Origin: an uncultured SAR86 cluster bacterium
GTDB lineage: Bacteria > Pseudomonadota > Gammaproteobacteria > Magnimaribacterales > D2472
Assembly (NCBI GenBank): GCA_902511575.1
Contig: CABXFU010000006.1
Coordinates: forward strand, 1-64,000
Length of the DNA: 64,000 nucleotides
Direction: 5' to 3'
Shown: positions 5,103 through 44,087 of the stretch, piece after piece
How the letters are laid out: every line of letters starts with the position of its first letter
Numbering within the stretch: the first letter of the stretch is position 1
Program-made: the position numbers and the translations under genes
Notes under the pieces: generated by a model
What the model was told of the DNA's origin: nothing
The model's input: only the letters and a program-made list of their open reading frames with translations
Database searches by the model: none

Positions 5103-6404
5103 ATGAGTAGCAAAATAAAAAAACTAAAAGATTTAGAACGCAAGTTGACTGTTTCAGTTCCTGTTGAGGATTACGAAAAAAAATATACTGGTAAGCTTTC
5201 AAAGATCAAATCTACAGCAAAACTTGATGGATTTAGAAAAGGCAATGTCCCTGATGACGTTCTTAAGCAGCGTTACGGAGATTCCATTCACTACGAAGTT
5301 TTAAATGAGCTTATCCAGGAGAGCTACCCCAAAGAACTTCAAGAACAGAACATTAAACCCGCATCCTCTCCTGCAATTAGTATTGAGAATGAAGATGCTG
5401 CGAAGCCTATTTCGTATTCAGCAGTGTTTGAAGTTTTTCCGGAAATTAAACCAAAGCTTTCTCGATGGAAAAGTTTTGAAAAATCTGAAATCACTTTGGA
5501 TGACTCAGATGTTGATCTGGCCATTAATGATATTCTGGAAAGGTATTGCGAGTGGCAAAAAGTTGAAAGAGCAGCTGAAGAAAAGGATCAAGCGGTCATT
5601 GATTTTGAAGGAAAAATTGATGGTGAGGGTTTTGAGGGAAATGAATCCAAAGATTTTAAATTGGTTATCGGTTCAAAATCTATGATTCCAGGATTTGAAG
5701 ATAACTTGGTTGGCAAGAATTCAGGAGAAAGCTTTTCATTCAAAACAAACTTCCCAGAAGATTATTTTAAGAAGGATTTAGCAGGTAAAGAGACTGAATT
5801 TTTTATTACAGTTCATGAGGTGCAAGAGATGCACAAGGCTAAAATTGACAAAGAGCTTTTTGAAAAACTTGCGATGGAAGATGTTTCTGATGAAAAAAGC
5901 TTCCGTGCAGAAATTTCAAAACGAATGGAAGGCGAGATAGCGCAACAAGAAAAATCTCTTACTAAGGAATCTATTTATGAAACGCTTCTTCAGAGTAATG
6001 ATTTTAAAGTTCCGAATGCTACGGTTGCAGAACAGGCAGAGCTCATGAGGAAGGATTCATTAATGCGTATGGGTCAAACTGCTGAAAATGCTCCTGAAGA
6101 TCTTTTTCCGGTCGATGAGTTTAAAGAAAATGCTGAAAAAAGAGTGAGGTTGGATCTCTTGTTTTCAGCCTTGATACAAAAATATGAGCTTGAAGTCAAA
6201 GAAGAGGATTTAAATGCGTTTATCGACGAGGAGGCTGAAAAGTACAAGGATGGCGAACAATTTAGGGCATGGATTCAAAGCCAGCCTCAGCAGCTTGATC
6301 AGTACAGAATGGTAATATTAGAAAATTTGCTCATTGAAAAATTAGATTCTGCCCTAAAATCTAAAGTAAAGGTGATAAAATTTTCAGAACTAGCTAATAA
6401 ATAA
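5103..6404 (+). CDS. tig: Trigger factor, ribosome-associated chaperone
   Basis: The 433-residue protein has the trigger factor architecture. An N-terminal ribosome-binding domain (about 1-115) contains the signature GFRKGNVP, a variant of the usual GFRxGKxP. A central FKBP-type prolyl isomerase domain (about 150-235) follows, and then a long helical chaperone domain to the C-terminus. It binds nascent chains at the ribosome exit tunnel. It is the first gene of the tig-clpP-clpX-lon block found in many proteobacteria, and clpP begins three bases after its stop. Confidence 0.96.
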   Translation: MSSKIKKLKDLERKLTVSVPVEDYEKKYTGKLSKIKSTAKLDGFRKGNVPDDVLKQRYGDSIHYEVLNELIQESYPKELQEQNIKPASSPAISIENEDAAKPISYSAVFEVFPEIKPKLSRWKSFEKSEITLDDSDVDLAINDILERYCEWQKVERAAEEKDQAVIDFEGKIDGEGFEGNESKDFKLVIGSKSMIPGFEDNLVGKNSGESFSFKTNFPEDYFKKDLAGKETEFFITVHEVQEMHKAKIDKELFEKLAMEDVSDEKSFRAEISKRMEGEIAQQEKSLTKESIYETLLQSNDFKVPNATVAEQAELMRKDSLMRMGQTAENAPEDLFPVDEFKENAEKRVRLDLLFSALIQKYELEVKEEDLNAFIDEEAEKYKDGEQFRAWIQSQPQQLDQYRMVILENLLIEKLDSALKSKVKVIKFSELANK

Positions 6405-7022: not shown

Positions 7023-8259
7023 AGACAACAATAAACTATCCTGCACTTTTTGTGGCAAAGGCCAAGAAGAGGTTCGCAAGCTTATTGCTGGACCGAGTGT
7101 TTACATCTGTGACGAGTGCGTTGACCTTTGCAATGACATTATAGAAGAGGAGGTCAAAGCTGAGGACGAAGAGGTGCTTGATGTTTTGCCATCTCCTTTA
7201 GAGATATTTAAGCAGCTTGATGATTACGTAATAGGCCAAGAGAAAGCTAAAAAAACTCTATCGGTTGCAGTTTATAATCACTATAAGCGATTGAGATCTA
7301 ATGCAAAGAAAGATGAGATTGAGCTTCAAAAAAGTAATGTTTTATTGCTTGGACCAACTGGCAGCGGTAAAACGCTTTTGGCACAAACTCTAGCAAGAGT
7401 TCTTAATGTTCCATTTACTATTGCGGATGCAACGACCTTAACTGAAGCTGGATATGTTGGCGAGGATGTTGAGAATATTATTCAGAAGCTTCTACAAAAA
7501 TGTGATTATGACCCCGATAAAGCCGCTCTTGGAATTGTGTATATTGATGAAATTGATAAGATTGCGCGCAAATCAGATAATCCCTCCATTACTAGAGATG
7601 TATCTGGTGAGGGCGTTCAGCAAGCCTTACTCAAGTTAATAGAGGGTACAGTTGCCTCAATCCCGCCTCAAGGTGGAAGAAAACATCCGCAACAAGAATT
7701 CATTCAGATTGATACTTCTAATATATTATTCATTTGCGGTGGAGCTTTTTCTGGGATTGATGAAGTAATCAAACATAGAACAGATAAATCTGGAATTGGC
7801 TTTGGTGCGGCTGTTAAAGATACTCAGGCATCTGTTGCTTCCATCGTAGAAACTTTAGAACCAGAAGATCTGGTTAAATTTGGCTTAATTCCAGAATTTG
7901 TTGGTAGATTGCCAGTGATCTCCACTTTGCATGAGTTAGATGAGGAAGCCTTGGTAAGAATTCTGCAAGAACCCAAAAATGCATTAGTTAATCAGTACAA
8001 ATACCTATTTGATATTGATGAGGTTGAATTAGATTTTCGAACCGAAGCTTTGCTTGAGATAGCAAAAAAGGCCCTGCAGAGAAAAACAGGCGCAAGAGGC
8101 TTAAGATCAATTATGGAAGAGCTACTAATGGATACAATGTTTGAGCTTCCTAATATTGATTTAGAAAAAGTAATCGTGGATGAGAACTCTGTCTTGCATT
8201 CAACAGATCCAATCAAGGTCTATAAATCTCCTAAGAAAAAATCCTCTTCTGCTGGTTGA
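7012..8259 (+). CDS. clpX: ATP-dependent Clp protease ATP-binding subunit ClpX
   Basis: The 415-residue AAA+ unfoldase has the N-terminal zinc-binding domain (CTFC and CDEC cysteine pairs within residues 11-40), a Walker A motif GPTGSGKT, a Walker B region VYIDEIDK and the GARGLR sensor-2 motif near the C-terminus. It recognises tagged substrates and feeds them to ClpP. It overlaps clpP by 11 bases, and lon follows after 30 bases. Confidence 0.97.
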
Positions 8260-8289: not shown

Positions 8290-10701
8290 ATGGCTACTAT
8301 TAAATATGATCTTCCACTTATTCCTCTCAGAGACGTCGTAGTATTTCCGGGCGTAGTCTCAACTCTATTTGTTGGCAGGAATAAATCCATCAATGCGCTG
8401 AATGCCGCCATGGCTGGGGAGAAGAAGATTATTTTAGCTGCACAAAAAGATGGGTCTTTGGATGCACCTTTGTTTGATGATTTGTATAAGGTCGCAACTA
8501 TTGCGAATATCCTGCAATTAATCAAACTGCCAGATGGAACTGTAAAAGTTTTGGTTGAGGGCTCCCACAGAGCTCAAATGAACTCTTTGGAGTCAGATTC
8601 AAAATTCTCTAAAGTTAGAGTAAGTCTTATTACCGAGCCTGCTATCGATTCTAAAGATGGAGAAAATTTAGCAAGGTTCATCAAAGCAAAGTTTCATGAT
8701 TTTATTAAAATTACGAAAAAAATCGCTCCAGAGGTTTTGGCATCAATTGATGCTTTGGATGATTTATCTAGAATTATTGATTCAATAGCTGGCCATTTGC
8801 CGATGGAAATTAAGCAAAAGCAAGAAATCCTTGAAACAGCTGACTTCCAGTTGAGGGCTGAAATTCTAATAGCTTTTATCGAATCTCAATTGGATGTGAT
8901 GGATGTCGATAAAAGAATCCGAAATAGAGTAAAAGGGCAGATGGAAAAATCTCAACGAGAGTATTATTTAAATGAGCAAATCAAGGCTGCCCAAAAAGAG
9001 CTGGGTGATATCAGTGAAGAGGGCGATGAAATCTCGCAGCTAGAAGAAGATATTTCCAAGGCAGGTATGTCCAAAGAAGCATTAAAAAAAGCAAACAATG
9101 AATTTACTAAGTTTAAGCAAATGTCTCCTATGTCAGCAGAGGCATCAGTTGTGCGCTCTTACTTAGATTGGTTAACTGTCATTCCTTGGAAGAAAAGAAG
9201 CAAAGTTAAATCAAACTTAAATTCAGCAACAGAAATTCTCAACGAAGATCACTTTGGCTTAGACGAAGTGAAAGAGAGAATTCTAGAATATTTAGCAGTT
9301 CAACAAAGAGTTAAAAAATTAAAAGCCCCAGTCTTGTGTTTGGTAGGCCCTCCAGGAGTTGGAAAAACTTCTCTTGGAAAATCTATCGCAAGGGCTACGA
9401 ATAGAAAATTTGCCAGAATGTCATTGGGCGGAGTTAGGGACGAGGCTGAAATTAGAGGGCATCGAAGAACCTACATTGGATCTATGCCAGGAAAAATTAT
9501 TCAAAAGCTTTCAAAAGTTGAAGTAAAAAATCCATTATTTCTTTTAGATGAGATCGATAAAATGGGCATGGATCACCGAGGTGATCCTGCTTCAGCTCTA
9601 TTAGAGGTTTTAGATCCAGAGCAAAATAATACATTTTCAGACCATTATCTAGAGGTGGATTTTGATCTCTCCGAGGTAATGTTTGTTTGTACTGCCAACA
9701 GTTTAAACATTCCCGGCCCATTGCTCGATCGCATGGAGATTATTAGGCTGCCTGGTTATATAGAGGATGAAAAACTAAACATAGCAAAACAATATTTAAT
9801 CCCTAAGCAGCTTGAAAGAAATGGGCTAGATGATAAAGAGGTTAAGCTTAGTGATAAATCTATATTGGACATAGTGCGTTACTATACGAGAGAGGCGGGT
9901 GTGAGAGGTCTCGAAAGACAGATTGCAAAGATTTTTAGAAAGTCAGTCAAAGAAAGAGTGTTAACAGATCCTAAAAAAATTAAATCTTCAATAAATATTA
10001 CTCCAAATAATTTAGAAAAATATTGCGGTGTTCCTAAATTTAAATTTGGAGAGGCTGATGTTGAGGACATTGTGGGTAAAGTTGCTGGCTTGGCATGGAC
10101 TGAAGTTGGCGGTGAGTTGTTAACCATTGAATCGTCATACGTACCTGGAAAAGGACAGGTAATTAAAACTGGTTCTTTGGGCGACGTGATGCAGGAATCC
10201 ATTCAAGCCGCTCTAACAGTCGTAAGGTCTAGATCAGAAAAATTAGGCATCCCTGTTAATTTTTATGAAAAATTTGATGTTCATATTCATGTTCCTGATG
10301 GAGCCACTCCCAAAGATGGGCCCAGCGCTGGAGTTGGAATGTGTACAGCTATGATTTCAGTTTTCACAGGAATACCTGTGAGATCGGATACTGCCATGAC
10401 AGGCGAAATTACATTACATGGTCAAGTCACAAAAATCGGTGGCCTGAAAGAAAAGTTATTAGCTGCTAAACGTGGAGGTATAAAGAGAGTTATTATTCCA
10501 GAAGATAATGCTGCCGATTTGAGAGAAATACCATCCCAAATTACACACGCATTAGAGATTCTTCCCGTGAGATGGGTCGATGAAGCCATCACTCAAGCCC
10601 TTACTTCCGAACCAAAACCAATCAAAAAAAGAAGAAGCTCTAAAAGTCTTAGCAAACCAAAATCATCCAGCGCTAGAACAACTTCCAGAAAACCCCATTA
10701 G
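8290..10701 (+). CDS. lon: ATP-dependent protease Lon
   Basis: The 803-residue protein has the three Lon parts: an N-terminal substrate-binding domain (about 1-200, starting PLIPLRDVVVFPG), a AAA+ domain with Walker A GPPGVGKT, and a C-terminal protease domain with catalytic Ser in KDGPSAG and Lys in GGLKEKLLAA. It removes damaged and regulatory proteins in the cytoplasm. The last 35 or so residues form a lysine/serine-rich tail beyond the usual end. It continues the clp operon order and is followed by hup with its own probable promoter. Confidence 0.97.
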   Translation: MATIKYDLPLIPLRDVVVFPGVVSTLFVGRNKSINALNAAMAGEKKIILAAQKDGSLDAPLFDDLYKVATIANILQLIKLPDGTVKVLVEGSHRAQMNSLESDSKFSKVRVSLITEPAIDSKDGENLARFIKAKFHDFIKITKKIAPEVLASIDALDDLSRIIDSIAGHLPMEIKQKQEILETADFQLRAEILIAFIESQLDVMDVDKRIRNRVKGQMEKSQREYYLNEQIKAAQKELGDISEEGDEISQLEEDISKAGMSKEALKKANNEFTKFKQMSPMSAEASVVRSYLDWLTVIPWKKRSKVKSNLNSATEILNEDHFGLDEVKERILEYLAVQQRVKKLKAPVLCLVGPPGVGKTSLGKSIARATNRKFARMSLGGVRDEAEIRGHRRTYIGSMPGKIIQKLSKVEVKNPLFLLDEIDKMGMDHRGDPASALLEVLDPEQNNTFSDHYLEVDFDLSEVMFVCTANSLNIPGPLLDRMEIIRLPGYIEDEKLNIAKQYLIPKQLERNGLDDKEVKLSDKSILDIVRYYTREAGVRGLERQIAKIFRKSVKERVLTDPKKIKSSINITPNNLEKYCGVPKFKFGEADVEDIVGKVAGLAWTEVGGELLTIESSYVPGKGQVIKTGSLGDVMQESIQAALTVVRSRSEKLGIPVNFYEKFDVHIHVPDGATPKDGPSAGVGMCTAMISVFTGIPVRSDTAMTGEITLHGQVTKIGGLKEKLLAAKRGGIKRVIIPEDNAADLREIPSQITHALEILPVRWVDEAITQALTSEPKPIKKRRSSKSLSKPKSSSARTTSRKPH

Positions 10702-40051: not shown

Positions 40052-40127
40052 GGGGCTATAGCTCAGCTGGGAGAGCGCTTGCGTGGCACGCAAGAGGTCG
40101 GCGGTTCGATCCCGCCTAGCTCCACCA
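40052..40127 (+). tRNA. tRNA-Ala (GGC anticodon), integration target
   Basis: The 76-base gene folds as a complete cloverleaf: acceptor GGGGCTA pairs with TAGCTCC, CCA is encoded, and the anticodon stem CTTGC/GCAAG encloses GTGGCAC, giving GGC. Its 3' 45 bases (40083-40127) are repeated exactly at 41998-42042, marking it as the attachment site of the element downstream. The full gene is retained, so tRNA function is preserved. Confidence 0.97.
40083..40127 (+). repeat. attL: 45-base direct repeat (3' end of tRNA-Ala)
   Basis: The anticodon loop through the CCA end of tRNA-Ala is identical to 41998-42042. Such repeats arise when a tyrosine recombinase inserts an element into a tRNA 3' end and the element supplies a copy of that end. 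Confidence 0.93.
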
Positions 40128-40258
40128 TACATTGCTTTACCTACAACCTTTCAAGCCAGTTTTTTAACAGATTCTACTCATATCTTTTTTATGAGCAGAA
40201 TATTTTTATATTCACAGATTGGCTTAGGTAAAGGGTTAAATAAGGGTGAAAAAGTCAA

Positions 40259-40282
40259 AATGTAGACAGAATGTAGACAGAT
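40259..40282 (+). repeat. 24-base direct repeat, left copy (possible integrase arm site)
   Basis: The sequence is identical to 41894-41917. Inside it AATGTAGACAG occurs twice in tandem, with an 11-base period of about one helical turn. It lies 131 bases inside the left att end. Confidence 0.85.
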
Positions 40283-40350
40283 GCCAGAACGAAATTTATT
40301 GAATCTTCGTATTCTTCAATTAAGATAAAAGTAATTAGGGGCGTTCCTAA

Positions 40351-40638
40351 ATGGGAGAATTTATGTTGAATGGAAAAAAACAATCAAGAGATTTTTTATC
40401 TTTAGAGAACTCTAGGAAAAATCTTATTTCTAATACCCAATTGCTATCTAAGATCATTATAGTTCTTAACGCTTTTATCGCATCAATTCTGTGCGGGTTA
40501 ATAGTTGGAGGAGAACGCAGTTTTAGTTTTGAGGCTGGGTTCTTTGGTCTCTTGGTAGGTGGTTACTTATCCTATTTAACATGCAGTATTGTTGTTGGAC
40601 TGATCGGGGTATTAACCTCAAGGGACTTTCCTAAATAG
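40351..40638 (+). CDS. Small two-helix membrane protein, element cargo, function unknown
   Basis: The 95-residue protein has a charged N-terminal 30 residues and two hydrophobic stretches: about 34-54 and 63-87, the latter rich in glycine (GFFGLLVGG). It probably forms a hairpin in the inner membrane. AGGGG nine bases before the ATG supports this start; a second ATG at 40363 with GGGAGA in front is possible. It is followed after 26 bases by the larger cargo gene, so they form an operon. I do not recognise the family. Holin-like, toxin-like and partner-subunit roles are all open. Confidence 0.6.
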   Translation: MGEFMLNGKKQSRDFLSLENSRKNLISNTQLLSKIIIVLNAFIASILCGLIVGGERSFSFEAGFFGLLVGGYLSYLTCSIVVGLIGVLTSRDFPK

Positions 40639-40664
40639 TTACACTGTAGGGAGAGGATTTTGAT

Positions 40665-41771
40665 ATGGCATTTACTGATCAAATAAAAACTAGTTTTGAA
40701 AGCAAAGTCTTTAATGATGAGCCCGACTCATTTATCTATATTAATCGCACCTATGCATCCAAGAATGAACCTCAACCAGATAGTGAAGATCTAAAACTAA
40801 TAAAACTGTTTGATAGCCCAGATGAATCTCAGCTAACAGGTAATCATGCATTTTCTGGCCCATATGGCCACGAAAAATGTAATTTAGATATTTATGAAAA
40901 AATATATTTTTACAGACCTTTGTTTGATAGAAGTGAATATGAAAAAAGCACACAAGAAATTGCTAAAGAGACTGGTGCAGATAAATTTTTTAAGGAATGG
41001 AATGCCAAATATAAAAAAATAAATAGAAGCATCACAACCGATGAAGAGAATTGGATTGAGCGAAGAGATGAGCAAAGAGAATTAGCAAGAGAAGAGCTTG
41101 AAAAGAAATATGAATCAGAGTTGCAAGAGTATTATAAAATTCTAGATCCATATAATAAATCCTTAAAAGGATCTTTTTTAATTAATGATGAGTTAAGAGC
41201 ACCTATCACTGCAGAAAATCTAGACAAATACATCACACCAAATAAAACAAGCCTTACTCTTATTTCCGAGAGCCTGATTGCAGAATGGTATTCTTTGGAT
41301 GATTCCTTCGCGTTAAAAGCGGATACTCCTCAGAAAAAAATAACTGCAATTAAAAAAAGACGGGCAGATATCATAAAATTTTTACCCGAAGGCAAAAGTA
41401 TTGATGAACTGCTTGATCAAGAGCTCTTGGAAAATCACAAAGTTACAAGAAAAACAATAAATGATAAAAAAATTAAAAAAGCTCAAGAAGAAGCTCAAGA
41501 AGATAAAGAGCACAGAATTGCTTCTGGCGAAGCTACCTTTGCTGAGGTCGTAAGCCAGCTATTGATTACTCCTCAATTCTATCTTTTGTTGATAGGAGCT
41601 GGTTTATTTTTTTATTACTTCTACCAATTAGAGAATTGGGAACCAAAAGAAACAATTAATTGCGGCAATCCACAGTCAAGCTATGAAGAAAATGTCTGCG
41701 ACCGAGCATATGAAAGAACTTTTGAAGAAAAATGGGGAAGAAAGCCTGGGAAGCTTCCCAAAATTCCATAA
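40665..41771 (+). CDS. Charged protein with C-terminal membrane anchor, element cargo, function unknown
   Basis: The 368-residue protein starts with a good ribosome site (GGAGAGG). About 300 residues are hydrophilic and charged, with likely coiled-coil or long helices around 115-155 and 250-285. A single hydrophobic segment follows (about 301-321, FYLLLIGAGLFFYYFY) and a 45-residue tail. The tail has INCGNPQSSYEENVCDRAY, with spacing like the start of LprI-type lysozyme-inhibitor domains (Cys...S..E..VC). If the tail faces the periplasm, the large N-terminal part is cytoplasmic. No enzyme motif was recognised. It is co-transcribed with the small membrane protein upstream, and a joint membrane complex is a fair hypothesis. 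Confidence 0.65.
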   Translation: MAFTDQIKTSFESKVFNDEPDSFIYINRTYASKNEPQPDSEDLKLIKLFDSPDESQLTGNHAFSGPYGHEKCNLDIYEKIYFYRPLFDRSEYEKSTQEIAKETGADKFFKEWNAKYKKINRSITTDEENWIERRDEQRELAREELEKKYESELQEYYKILDPYNKSLKGSFLINDELRAPITAENLDKYITPNKTSLTLISESLIAEWYSLDDSFALKADTPQKKITAIKKRRADIIKFLPEGKSIDELLDQELLENHKVTRKTINDKKIKKAQEEAQEDKEHRIASGEATFAEVVSQLLITPQFYLLLIGAGLFFYYFYQLENWEPKETINCGNPQSSYEENVCDRAYERTFEEKWGRKPGKLPKIP

Positions 41772-41893
41772 AGTATTTTTATAACTGATTGGAAAAATGA
41801 TAAAAATAACGAGCTTAGAGAGCGAAGATCACACTTAAAAAACTATCGAAAAGCATGTTAAAAGATGCAAGACGAACTTTTTAGGCTTTCAGA

Positions 41894-41917
41894 AATGTAG
41901 ACAGAATGTAGACAGAT
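41894..41917 (+). repeat. 24-base direct repeat, right copy (possible integrase arm site)
   Basis: It is identical and in the same orientation to 40259-40282, and lies 80 bases before the right att copy. Direct repeats of doubled short motifs near both ends are what arm-type recombinase sites look like. Confidence 0.85.
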
Positions 41918-41997
41918 TAATTCTCTTCATTGTCTCGCATCGTTGAAACACACTGATAGAGGGAGAATGAGGCAAGTGCCAAGATAAGATGGCTTAT

Positions 41998-42042
41998 GTG
42001 GCACGCAAGAGGTCGGCGGTTCGATCCCGCCTAGCTCCACCA
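41998..42042 (+). repeat. attR: duplicated 3' fragment of tRNA-Ala
   Basis: It exactly matches bases 40083-40127. The flanks differ on both sides (the tRNA has GC, this copy AT, just before), so this is a tRNA fragment without a 5' half and cannot act as a tRNA. Confidence 0.93.
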
Positions 42043-42086
42043 ATCTGTTTTTAGGAATACGTTTATTGCTCATAAGCCTATTCGAC

Positions 42087-42830
42087 TTAATTAGCCATTG
42101 CCGCTTCGTTATAGGCAGATATTAGTATTTTCCAATCGGCCAGTTGCCAATAAATATTACGTAATCTTTTTTCTTTTTCAAACGATCGCTTTAAACGCAC
42201 CATGTTTGAGTTTTTCCAATTACTGCCTTGTCTAATTCCGCATTTATCAAAATCAATTAACCAAACCTCGTTTTCTATATCGAGCATAATGTTGTGGATA
42301 TTTAAATCGTGGTGATAAATCTGATGATGATGAAATTTGGCAATGGTTTGCCCAATTTTTTTCCATACATCAGCGGTTAAGCTGTTTGCTAGTAAAATAT
42401 GATGTAAGTCTTTAGCGCTGGAAATTTTTTTTGAAATGATATCGGCTTGGTAATATAAGCCTGTCTTCTTTAACATCGCTGCGATCGGAGTTGGACAATT
42501 TAAATCCATATTTTTCATGTGCTGTAGTAGCTTAAATTCTTGCCATACTCGTGATTTTTCAATACCTGTATACATATATTGATCACTTAGCACTTTTCCA
42601 ATCAAGCCACCGCGACGATAGTGCCGTAACACATATTCATTTTTGTTATGTTGAAAAAAGTAGGTGGTGCCACGGCCGGTTGCCTGTCCTGTTATGGCAT
42701 TTTGTGTCTTCCAATATTGACCTGTAAACATTTTTGGGACAAGTGCAGGGAAATGGCCTGCATCAAACAACATGATGTGGGACTTAACTGCTTTTTGTTG
42801 TATGTATGCCATGCAACAATTTTGATCCAA
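42087..42830 (-). CDS. kdkA: 3-deoxy-D-manno-octulosonic acid kinase
   Basis: The 247-residue protein is a WaaP/KdkA-type small-molecule kinase with a protein-kinase-like fold. It has a glycine-containing loop GRGTTYFF, a lysine-substitute region VLRHYRRGG and the catalytic loop YHHDLNIHNIMLD followed by LIDFDKC, where Asp binds magnesium. KdkA phosphorylates Kdo at the 4-position in the LPS inner core of bacteria that carry a single Kdo. The start could be Met7 instead of Met1. Arginine codons include CGT, CGC and CGG, whereas AGA dominates elsewhere, suggesting transfer from another source. It lies just outside the tRNA-Ala repeat. Confidence 0.85.
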   Translation of the reverse strand: MDQNCCMAYIQQKAVKSHIMLFDAGHFPALVPKMFTGQYWKTQNAITGQATGRGTTYFFQHNKNEYVLRHYRRGGLIGKVLSDQYMYTGIEKSRVWQEFKLLQHMKNMDLNCPTPIAAMLKKTGLYYQADIISKKISSAKDLHHILLANSLTADVWKKIGQTIAKFHHHQIYHHDLNIHNIMLDIENEVWLIDFDKCGIRQGSNWKNSNMVRLKRSFEKEKRLRNIYWQLADWKILISAYNEAAMAN

Positions 42831-42855
42831 ATAAGACTTTTAGTAAAATAAATAT

Positions 42856-42876
42856 CCCTTGATTTATCTTCAAGGG
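42856..42876 (-). terminator. Hairpin between glycosyltransferase and kdkA
   Basis: CCCTTGA pairs with TCAAGGG over a seven-base loop. On the minus strand it follows the glycosyltransferase stop and is trailed only by an AT-rich stretch (ATATTTATTTTA), so termination would be weak. Confidence 0.4.
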
Positions 42877-42879
42877 CAT

Positions 42880-43803
42880 CTATTTTTGGCTTAAACGGAT
42901 ATTACTACGCACTTTAGAGAATTGAGAATTTTCAGTATAACGTCCTTTTGTAACATGACGAATATGAAAAACACCATCAATATGCTTAGGCTCACCATCA
43001 GTGCCAAGTAGCCAGCGAAAGGCGGTGTCTTCATAGGTTTTACGCCAACGGTCAGATTCAGTTTGAAATATTGACAGTTTTTCACAATAACCGATAGCAC
43101 GAGCAACGTCACCATGAACAATTTGAAATGCGCCGCGTGCTTTATCACGGGATTTATCACGCTCGTATAAACTGAAATTTTCTGTTTCTATATCGATAAC
43201 TTGTGGTTGGGCATCATTTGACAATAATGGGTCATCATCTTTTAACATCTCAGTGATTTTTTCTTCTTTTGGAAAAAACAATGAACCTTTCTCGCCTTGT
43301 AAACTATCGGCGAGTGAGTCTAAGCAGTTCTCATAAAAGATAATGTCGCAATCTGTAAACCATATCCAGTCAGCTTCTGTTGACCGCGCAGCCATATTTC
43401 GGCCTATGCCACGTCTAAAGAGCTTTCCTTTGGAAAGTGGGTGGAAATTCCAAGAGATATTTGGCATGGTTATTTGACTAAAGAAGTCCAATGTAGCCTT
43501 TGTTTTAGTGTCTTCTTCAGCATAAAAAACGGTCACAGTTAAATTTAGTTTTGTTGGTGGATAGTTTACAAACGAACTTAATTGATAGGTTAACATGTTG
43601 GCATAACCCCAACAGTGACTAACAATTTCTAAATCAAACTTTCCCTTTACTGCCTTGCGATCTACTTCAGCAGGTATTTTATCGCGAAACAATGACTGTG
43701 GTAAAATACGACCAAACACTAAACGATAAGCTTGTATAGCAAAGCTATTAAAGCCATTTGGTGAAAATGTTTTTGTTTCTATCATGATAAATAAGTAAGC
43801 CAA
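42880..43803 (-). CDS. Family 2-type glycosyltransferase
   Basis: The 307-residue protein has a GT-A fold: a nucleotide-binding start near residue 55 (LEIVSHCWGYANML), a segment RGIGRNMAARSTEADWIWFTDCDIIF where DCD is the DXD-type metal and sugar-nucleotide site, and a C-terminal acceptor region. No membrane segments are obvious. The kdkA gene lies downstream on the same strand, separated by a hairpin, so an LPS-core role is likely. The first six residues may not be translated, since a second Met lies at position 7. Arginine codon use (CGC, CGT, CGA) is atypical for the window. Confidence 0.78.
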   Translation of the reverse strand: MAYLFIMIETKTFSPNGFNSFAIQAYRLVFGRILPQSLFRDKIPAEVDRKAVKGKFDLEIVSHCWGYANMLTYQLSSFVNYPPTKLNLTVTVFYAEEDTKTKATLDFFSQITMPNISWNFHPLSKGKLFRRGIGRNMAARSTEADWIWFTDCDIIFYENCLDSLADSLQGEKGSLFFPKEEKITEMLKDDDPLLSNDAQPQVIDIETENFSLYERDKSRDKARGAFQIVHGDVARAIGYCEKLSIFQTESDRWRKTYEDTAFRWLLGTDGEPKHIDGVFHIRHVTKGRYTENSQFSKVRSNIRLSQK

Positions 43804-43937
43804 AAAAAGGAATCTGTTCTAAAAAAAGGATACCATATTGCTTAACATTACTGCCAATCGAACTGAGCATAGCGAGGACAATCGTGCCATGTTATCGGGA
43901 TATTGAGTATGAGGGGTAGCAATAACTCCACAAATAA

Positions 43938-44087
43938 ATGAATCTTGCTGCGAAGGTGCTCAAAGCTGAGTTAGATCCCAAGCCTAGTAGATTGTTTAAT
44001 ATTAAACGGCAGTGCCAAACCTTAGAGAGTATCTACCAAGAACTCTGTAAAACCGGTCTAGGGTTAAGTAACTATTCTATTTTTTAA
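43938..44087 (+). CDS. Small open reading frame of 49 codons, probably a remnant
   Basis: An ATG-started frame encodes MNLAAKVLKAELDPK... with basic and polar composition, ending at the stop of the convergent oxidase gene. It lacks a clear ribosome binding site, has no membrane segment and I do not recognise it. Its location in the 280-base gap at the edge of the atypical LPS genes makes a decayed island gene more likely than an active one. Confidence 0.25.
   Translation: MNLAAKVLKAELDPKPSRLFNIKRQCQTLESIYQELCKTGLGLSNYSIF

What the first reader, a model, noticed from the sequence alone, without database searches (positions are those of the whole stretch)
40052..42042. Minimal element inserted in tRNA-Ala with intact att repeats and no integrase
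The 3' 45 bases of tRNA-Ala(GGC) recur exactly 1.9 kb downstream. Between the copies are only two unrecognised genes and a pair of short repeats. tRNA-targeting tyrosine recombinases produce this signature, and cis-mobilizable elements and small satellites are known to keep att sites while lacking the recombinase. At this size it would be a very small example. The repeat is observed directly; mobilisation in trans is inference.
Basis: partly seen in the sequence, partly recalled or inferred. Interest (0 to 1): 0.78.

Follow-up and report, generated by a model that had tools for sequence, protein, structure and literature searches.

The report
Tiny tRNA-inserted element lacking its integrase
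A 1.9-kilobase piece of DNA has inserted itself cleanly into a tRNA gene of a small-genome bacterium, carrying what look like the complete landing and docking sites of a phage-type integrase but no integrase of its own, so it probably moves by borrowing one.

Summary
tRNA-Ala(GGC) lies at 40052-40127 and its 3' 45 bases recur exactly at 41998-42042. Neither gene between matches a family above cut-off; no relative of the larger one was accepted in the collections searched. The 'pair of short repeats' is the most informative part: each is two ATGTAGACA words in 11-bp register, one set inside each end. Three viral contigs have the same layout (two arm pairs, same orientation, flanking a tRNA-3'-half-like core, integrase alongside). 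In closely related viral contigs all four arm words change together, along with integrase residues 24-32. So these are very probably integrase arm sites, and the element holds complete-looking attL and attR without an integrase. It sits in front of an older, decayed LPS-gene island; in relative G010 that island is flanked by the same 45-bp repeat and also lacks an integrase. Best reading: a minimal cis-mobilizable element moved in trans by a phage-type integrase. Present mobility and the helper are not shown.

The parts
40052..40127 (+). tRNA-Ala(GGC); its 3' part 40083-40127 is the attL core (the intact tRNA is restored by the element)
   Evidence: ARAGORN; repeat; pattern
40083..40089 (+). 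inferred crossover region GTGGCAC in the anticodon loop (7 bp)
   Evidence: left limit: the 45-bp identity begins here; a different insertion in G020 keeps tRNA bases 1-38 (37 of 38 identical), i.e. ends at the same GTGGCAC; inference
40258..40282 (+). left arm-site pair AAATGTAGACAGAATGTAGACAGAT (2 x ATGTAGACA, 11-bp register)
   Evidence: compared with viral attP-like sites
40351..40638 (+). ORF of 95 aa, two hydrophobic stretches by eye; no family above cut-off
40665..41771 (+). ORF of 368 aa, one hydrophobic stretch near residues 303-323 followed by a short tail with two Cys (by eye); no family above cut-off and no accepted relative
   Evidence: unaligned fold poor, mean pLDDT 49.7
41893..41917 (+). 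right arm-site pair, identical to the left one and in the same orientation
41998..42042 (+). attR core: exact copy of the tRNA-Ala 3' 45 bases
42043..44083 (-). older neighbour, not part of the 1.9-kb element: decayed LPS-gene island (Kdo/WaaP-type kinase 42087-42830, glycosyltransferase-like ORF 42880-43803, last codons of a GT4 gene within ORF 43938-44087). In G010 it is a 3,306-bp unit with its own 45-bp tRNA-Ala repeat

Best explanation
The interval 40083-42042 is a non-autonomous integrated element. A tyrosine integrase supplied in trans (most likely by a temperate phage or phage-derived island) recombined a circular form of it with the tRNA-Ala(GGC) gene, in the 7-bp anticodon-loop region GTGGCAC; the element's own 45-bp copy restored the tRNA. 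The element keeps the DNA such an integrase is expected to need: two cores and, inside each end, a pair of TGTAGACA arm sites. On the predicted circle the order is arm pair, 128 bp to the end of the tRNA copy, 133 bp, arm pair. It carries two genes of unknown function as cargo. It inserted in front of an older integrase-less LPS island at the same tRNA. Shown here: the exact repeats, the clean empty sites in relatives, no integrase found inside, and a like arm/core layout in attP-like sites of viral contigs. Inferred: function of the arms in this organism, the circular form, the helper, present mobility, and any role of the two genes.
For: Exact 45-bp repeat and 25-bp arm repeat. Empty sites: of the 15 relatives whose full-length tRNA-Ala(GGC) region was fetched (three further stretches were G019 contig-end pieces), 4 have the tRNA joined directly to the sequence after window 42042, 194-197 of 200 bases identical; the other 11 give 43-66 of 200. 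Arm layout: three viral contigs (L110, L097, L152) with an integrase-like gene have two TGTAGACA pairs in one orientation (one pair with one mismatch in L097 and in L152) flanking a tRNA-3'-half-like core. Eight viral records with related integrases have all four arm words identical within each record but of three kinds between records (TGTAGACA, TGTACACA, TGTTAACA), and a ninth uses repeated TGTTTGCA. The TGTAGACA and TGTACACA groups (2 and 4 proteins) are separated by 7 integrase columns, 6 of them at residues 24-32; L171 and L173 differ at 10 sites in residues 1-70 and 2 in the other 312. 19 of 80 viral loci with the arm pair have it within 500 bp of a recombinase-like ORF, against a mean of 6.6 (maximum 16 of 2,000 placements) at random. 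A like tRNA-Ala anticodon-loop break is seen in viral contig L187, which has tRNA-Ala at one end, a 3' fragment at the other and an integrase. P2-like integrases are reported to bind two arm sites flanking the core, each with two direct repeats (PMC3931495, passages).
Against: No second copy of the element, no accepted relative of ORF368 (ORF95 was tried only against profile libraries), and no helper carrying both this core and these arms was found: the TGTAGACA pair occurs in 1 of 203 genomes of the order, only at this element, and the 45-bp core in 0 viral contigs (records very near the own genome may be left out of that collection). The TGTAGACA pair is not proof of an integrase site: 56 of the 80 viral loci (a capped list) showed no recombinase-like ORF in the DNA held, and some carry many copies without a tRNA-like core. 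The 19 near-integrase loci fall into about 10 groups at 60% identity, 8 of the 19 being one near-identical group, so they are not independent. Spacing varies: arm pair to CCA end 128 bp here, 132, 89 and 177 in the three viral sites; the other side 133 here, 69, 110 and 82. Of 14 loci with a related integrase, L179-L182 showed no paired arm word in the upstream stretch examined. The LPS island in G010 has no such arm words, so if it moved the same way it used others. The genome is 83% complete, so a resident helper could be missing. Reads joining 42042 to 40128 could not be examined.
Confidence: 0.72

Rival explanations
1. Dead remnant: a normal prophage or island with its own integrase entered tRNA-Ala, and an internal deletion removed all but the ends and two genes. 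The ends survive but nothing moves it now.
For: The closest published concept (CIME) is defined as a decayed element that kept attL and attR (PMC5704250, passages). The neighbouring LPS island is visibly decaying in the window. No second copy of the element was found.
Against: Both cores and both arm pairs are letter-perfect, both ORFs are open, and no integrase or phage family was matched above cut-off in the two proteins. This fits a recent arrival better than long decay, but does not exclude a recent deletion.
Confidence: 0.25
2. The insertion and duplication arose by homologous recombination or tandem duplication around the tRNA, without an integrase.
For: The LPS cassette downstream has spread at 95-99% DNA identity between genera, in most places without a detected tRNA repeat at its ends.
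Against: The break lies in the anticodon loop, a usual tyrosine-integrase position (recalled); a like break recurs in G010, G020, G030 and in integrase-bearing viral contig L187. Paired arm words inside both ends have no explanation under this model.
Confidence: 0.05
3. Assembly artefact: two separate sequences were joined through the 45-bp repeat.
For: The genome is an incomplete assembly in 25 contigs, and no reads were available.
Against: The contig is 97 kb, the flanks match relatives on both sides, and the arm repeats sit inside both ends. A like repeat structure exists in G010, whose locus lies on a 1.19-Mb contig.
Confidence: 0.04

Closest known systems
CIME (cis-mobilizable element): lost integration and transfer genes, kept attL and attR (PMC5704250, passages read; PMC3146451 reports 15 ssrA islands without integration modules, passages read)
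   Same: Flanked by att sites in a tRNA/tmRNA-type gene, no integrase, stacked next to another island at the same site (accretion).
   Different: 1.9 kb with two unknown genes. CIMEs in the review passages descend from ICEs/IMEs; here the arm sites resemble those beside phage-type integrases, and no conjugation gene was recognised.
P2-like and other temperate-phage attP sites using tRNA genes
   Same: tRNA-3'-half core between two arm sites, each of two direct repeats; the TGTAGACA word itself occurs beside a P2-like integrase (L101: best PDB hit 5c6k 'Integrase', E 5.7e-84, also 1aih 'HP1 integrase'; that 5c6k is the P2 enzyme is recalled) and in viral contigs L110/L172.
   Different: No integrase, no phage genes recognised, and a core specific to tRNA-Ala(GGC) of this group that was not found in viral contigs.
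Phage satellites: PICMI, PICI, P4-like, VEIME, tycheposons
   Same: Small integrated elements, several of marine bacteria, thought to use phages; tRNA sites in tycheposons (PMC10872708, passages).
   Different: [quoted passage not shown] None was recognised here, nor a packaging or replication gene.
MITEs and CALINs (non-autonomous relatives of insertion sequences and integrons)
   Same: DNA that keeps only the recombination sites and relies on an enzyme in trans (PMC11389934, passages).
   Different: The enzyme expected here is a site-specific phage-type tyrosine integrase; the defining sites are a tRNA core and arm words, not transposon ends or attC sites.

Membership tests
CIME / integrase-less genomic island | flanked by attL and attR direct repeats at an integrase target gene | tested here: met
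   45-bp exact repeat of the tRNA-Ala 3' end
CIME / integrase-less genomic island | precise insertion: empty site present in relatives | tested here: met
   G001, G002, G008, G010, 4 of 15 examined
CIME / integrase-less genomic island | no integration or transfer genes inside | tested here: met
   the only ORFs of 90 aa or more in the interval are the two named; no family above cut-off in Pfam or NCBIfam and none at E below 0.01 in PHROGs or PADLOC
CIME / integrase-less genomic island | att sites functional; mobilised by a helper | not testable with these tools
   arm and core anatomy intact; no assay or reads
CIME / integrase-less genomic island | descends from an ICE or IME | tested here: inconclusive
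   no trace of conjugation genes; arms resemble phage attP sites
P2-type attP architecture | core flanked by two arm sites, each of two direct repeats | tested here: met
   2 + 2 ATGTAGACA in one orientation around the core on the predicted circle; definition from PMC3931495 (passages). Binding itself not tested
Phage satellite (PICI/PICMI/P4-like) | encodes its own integrase | tested here: not met
   no PF00589 match in the element; the assembly's two matches lie on other contigs
Phage satellite (PICI/PICMI/P4-like) | packaged in helper virions | not testable with these tools
   ORF368 and the tRNA core not found in IMG/VR, which does not decide it

The most novel reading that the evidence does not exclude
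The element belongs to an unrecognised class of integrase parasites: naked cargo cassettes that carry only a complete attP (core plus paired arm words) and ride phage integrases into tRNA genes, as MITEs ride transposases. The concerted switching of all four arm words together with integrase residues 24-32 in otherwise closely related viral contigs would be one side of an arms race with such parasites. The integrase-less LPS island at the same tRNA, and its G030 copy with a different arm word (GCCACGTA) 127 bp before its tRNA-Ala fragment end, would be further members with other arm codes (against this: G030 shows that pair on one side only, and G010 shows none).
Probability: 0.25. Interest if true: 0.85.

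Novelty: new variant of a known kind. Interest (0 to 1): 0.55.

Why it matters
If the reading holds, gene transfer into tRNA sites of streamlined bacteria does not need an element with its own integrase: about 2 kb with the right att DNA suffices. The arm word makes this testable, because it predicts which integrases can move the element. It may also help explain how cargo such as the LPS cassette spreads between genera whose genomes show few integrases. The viral series with matched arm-word and N-terminal residue changes is a ready-made data set for reading the arm-binding code of tyrosine integrases.

Tried and rejected
Relatives of ORF368: IMG/VR, GTDB contigs, phages and plasmids by tblastn, 59 relatives and 369 class genomes including the own. 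The single weak hit, G368 (E 4.4e-4), lies in a gene that reads as DprA (my recognition; not run through a family search) and was rejected as chance. ORF95 was compared only with profile libraries. Structure of ORF368: mean pLDDT 49.7, pTM 0.24, so no fold search was run; one of two jobs used.

Helper search: PF00589 gives 2 matches in the own genome, 303 and 306 aa, in the size range of XerC/XerD (inference). In 203 genomes of the order, 197 have a match; by my count of the table 25 of 203 have three or more, so extra integrases exist. G009 has a 529-aa integrase with an arm-DNA-binding domain, without the TGTAGACA word near it. G015 has a 106-aa fragment beside a tRNA-Ser. None was tied to this element. 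The 45-bp core and a looser version with 27 fixed bases gave 0 viral contigs; the exact 20-base arm pair gave 0 in GTDB contigs and a 21-base form 0 in IMG/VR. Arm words were sought in the G010 island ends without success. The kinase of the LPS island gave 0 relatives in IMG/VR. A terminase-like look (by eye) of a G030 gene was not supported by Pfam or PHROGs.

Dropped rows: the early-stopping L176 frame was excluded from the reading (its rows appear in that output and mean nothing); L179-L182 showed no paired arm word within 1,000 bp (776 bp for L179) upstream; L184 was left out, L183 of the protein alignment. Gene labels thiolase, tauD, coq7 and ald on are my own by eye. SAR86 as host group, and a marine origin of the viral contigs, are my inference; no call named the genome or the habitats.

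Full report
What is there. The window lies on a 97-kb contig of a 1.39-Mb, 83%-complete assembly in 25 contigs. tRNA-Ala(GGC) is at 40052-40127. Bases 32-76 of it recur exactly at 41998-42042, 1,915 bp further on, and nowhere else in the assembly. Upstream of the 45 bases likeness fades: 7 of the next 11 bases agree. A 25-bp sequence, AAATGTAGACAGAATGTAGACAGAT, is present once inside each end (40258-40282, 41893-41917), in the same orientation; it is the word ATGTAGACA twice at an 11-bp step. No shuffle of 20,000 gave any 8-mer paired this way near both ends. Two ORFs on the + strand, 95 and 368 aa, fill the middle. They match no family above cut-off in Pfam or NCBIfam, and none convincingly in PHROGs or PADLOC.

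It is an insertion. In the 26 genomes of the genus (own included), 20 match the tRNA query. I fetched the region for the 15 relatives with a full-length tRNA of at least 95% identity, plus three contig-end pieces of G019. In G001, G002, G008 and G010 the intact tRNA is followed at once by the sequence that in the window follows 42042: 194-197 of 200 bases, against 49-50 of 200 for the sequence that follows the window's tRNA. The other 11 have other sequences there, 43-66 of 200, so the site is variable. G001 is the nearest at three neighbouring genes (96-98% protein identity at the genes I call thiolase, coq7 and ald; the tauD-like one is only 83%) and lacks the insert. ORF368 was found in none of the 59 relatives searched.

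The short repeats look like integrase arm sites. I searched IMG/VR for TGTAGACA-N3-TGTAGACA and got 80 loci, the cap. With a profile grown from the Xer-like proteins of the genus, 24 of the 80 loci held a recombinase-like ORF, and in 19 of 80 the pair lay within 500 bp of it; random placement gave 6.6 on average and at most 16 in 2,000 trials. The 19 fall into about 10 groups at 60% identity, 8 of them one near-identical group, one member of which, L101, matches P2/HP1-type integrases in the PDB; so the test overstates independence, and 56 of 80 loci show no such ORF. More telling are three contigs, L097, L110 and L152, in which two arm pairs in one orientation flank a tRNA-3'-half-like core, with an integrase on the same stretch. 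On the predicted circle the window element has the same arrangement. The first arm pair lies 128 bp before the CCA end, compared with 132 bp in L171 (the L110 record), 89 in L097 and 177 in L152; the second side is 133 bp against 69, 110 and 82. The layout is shared; the spacing is not fixed.

A natural test of the arms. Relatives of the L110 integrase gave 14 loci. Eight of them have four arm words each, two at an 11-bp step and two more 220 bp on: TGTAGACA in L171 and L172, TGTACACA in L173, L174, L177, L178 and L183, TGTTAACA in L175; L176 has repeated TGTTTGCA; L179-L182 showed no pair in the stretch examined; L184 was not examined. Within each of the eight all four words agree, while the sequence between them stays close: L171 and L173 differ at 4 of 32 arm bases, one per word, and 12 of 207 others. 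The integrases change with the arms: L171 and L173 differ at 10 places in residues 1-70 and at 2 in the remaining 312; the columns separating the TGTAGACA and TGTACACA groups are 24-27, 31, 32 and 95. This is what one expects of an arm-binding domain and its sites. The window element carries the TGTAGACA word.

The site is used by others. In G010 the same 45-bp repeat recurs 3,306 bp behind the first and encloses three genes and no integrase: an LPS-type kinase (the window copy matches Kdo/WaaP, E 5e-49), a glycosyltransferase-like gene (window copy 22.1 bits to PF00535, just under the cut-off of 23.3) and a GT4 glycosyltransferase. In the window the same island follows the 1.9-kb element, 97.1% identical over 2,041 bp to G010, with all but the last codons of the GT4 gene and the far repeat lost, although flanking proteins of the two genomes are only 67-81% identical. 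So two integrase-less units have stacked here. In G020 the tRNA's first 38 bases (37 identical), ending at GTGGCAC, are followed by a 459-bp insert and a full tRNA: another break in the same 7 bp. In G030 the LPS island is followed by a tRNA-Ala 3' fragment with a GCCACGTA-N3-GCCACGTA pair 127 bp before its end, with no such pair on the other side. In viral contig L187 a tRNA-Ala(GGC) is broken at about the same point by a 14-kb element that does carry an integrase.

How it most likely works. Shown: insertion, repeats, arm anatomy, no integrase found inside. Inferred: a phage-type tyrosine integrase, supplied in trans, bound the arm pairs, cut in the anticodon loop, and joined the circle to the tRNA gene. 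I put the reading 'integrated element moved by a borrowed integrase' at about 0.72, and a freshly deleted remnant at 0.25. The helper is unknown. In the order, the TGTAGACA pair occurs only in this element (1 of 203 genomes), and by my count of the table 25 of 203 genomes show more than two PF00589 matches. A visiting phage is therefore likelier than a resident helper, though about 17% of the genome is missing.

Known or new. By definition it fits a cis-mobilizable element (PMC5704250, passages; PMC3146451, passages), so the kind is known. Its size, the intact phage-type arm sites and the lack of any recognised phage or conjugation gene make it a variant. It is not a satellite in the published sense, since those are said to encode their integrase (PMC10803314, passages). 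The searches did not show a description of an element of this size and make-up, nor of the arm switching; only papers with open licences are held, and I read listings and passages, not whole texts. A SAR86 genome paper held no occurrence of integrase, genomic island, tRNA, phage or mobile in its main text (PMC11582366). The host is probably a SAR86-like marine bacterium, from genome size and kinship only; no call named it.

Noticed in passing
L171-L178, L183 (IMG/VR contigs), about 86-621 bp upstream of the integrase: In closely related viral contigs all four integrase arm words switch together (TGTAGACA, TGTACACA, TGTTAACA; TGTTTGCA repeats in L176), with matching changes at integrase residues 24-32: a natural arm-specificity series.
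   Followed up: partly
window 42087-43803; loci L198-L214: The Kdo/WaaP-type kinase is present in 21 of 107 family genomes (own included), 5 of 10 genera, at 91-99% protein identity, twice in G105. The kinase-GT stretch is 95-99% identical in DNA and lies near different tRNA genes: Ala, Gly, Ser, Glu, Arg. No tRNA 3' copy was found in the 12 tRNA-bearing loci tested.
   Followed up: partly
L203 (G030) 9490-9635: The LPS island is followed by a tRNA-Ala 3' fragment (97.8% over 46 bases) with a GCCACGTA pair in 11-bp register upstream of it; no full tRNA in the 13 kb fetched, no such pair on the other side, and the pair occurs once in 107 genomes.
   Followed up: partly
L204 (G103), about 5720-5805 and 7535-7620 of the stretch as oriented: The same cassette is flanked by direct repeats holding two GGGTACA-type words and what looks like a copy of the tRNA-Glu terminator hairpin, seen by eye.
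   Followed up: no
L039 (G020), reverse complement 7662-8234: tRNA-Ala first 38 bases, then a 459-bp insert with a small lipoprotein-like ORF (by eye), then a full tRNA-Ala: an insertion that restores the tRNA's 5' rather than 3' part.
   Followed up: partly
L167 (G009:C7, 7,952-bp contig): 529-aa integrase with an Arm-DNA-bind_3 domain, PHROG 'integrase', on a short contig of small membrane/exported-looking genes (by eye): an unplaced mobile element in the same genus.
   Followed up: partly
L103, L108, L119, L125, L150, L164: Viral contigs with several TGTAGACA words, often in both orientations, and no recombinase-like ORF in the DNA held: the word also occurs in some other repeat structure.
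   Followed up: no
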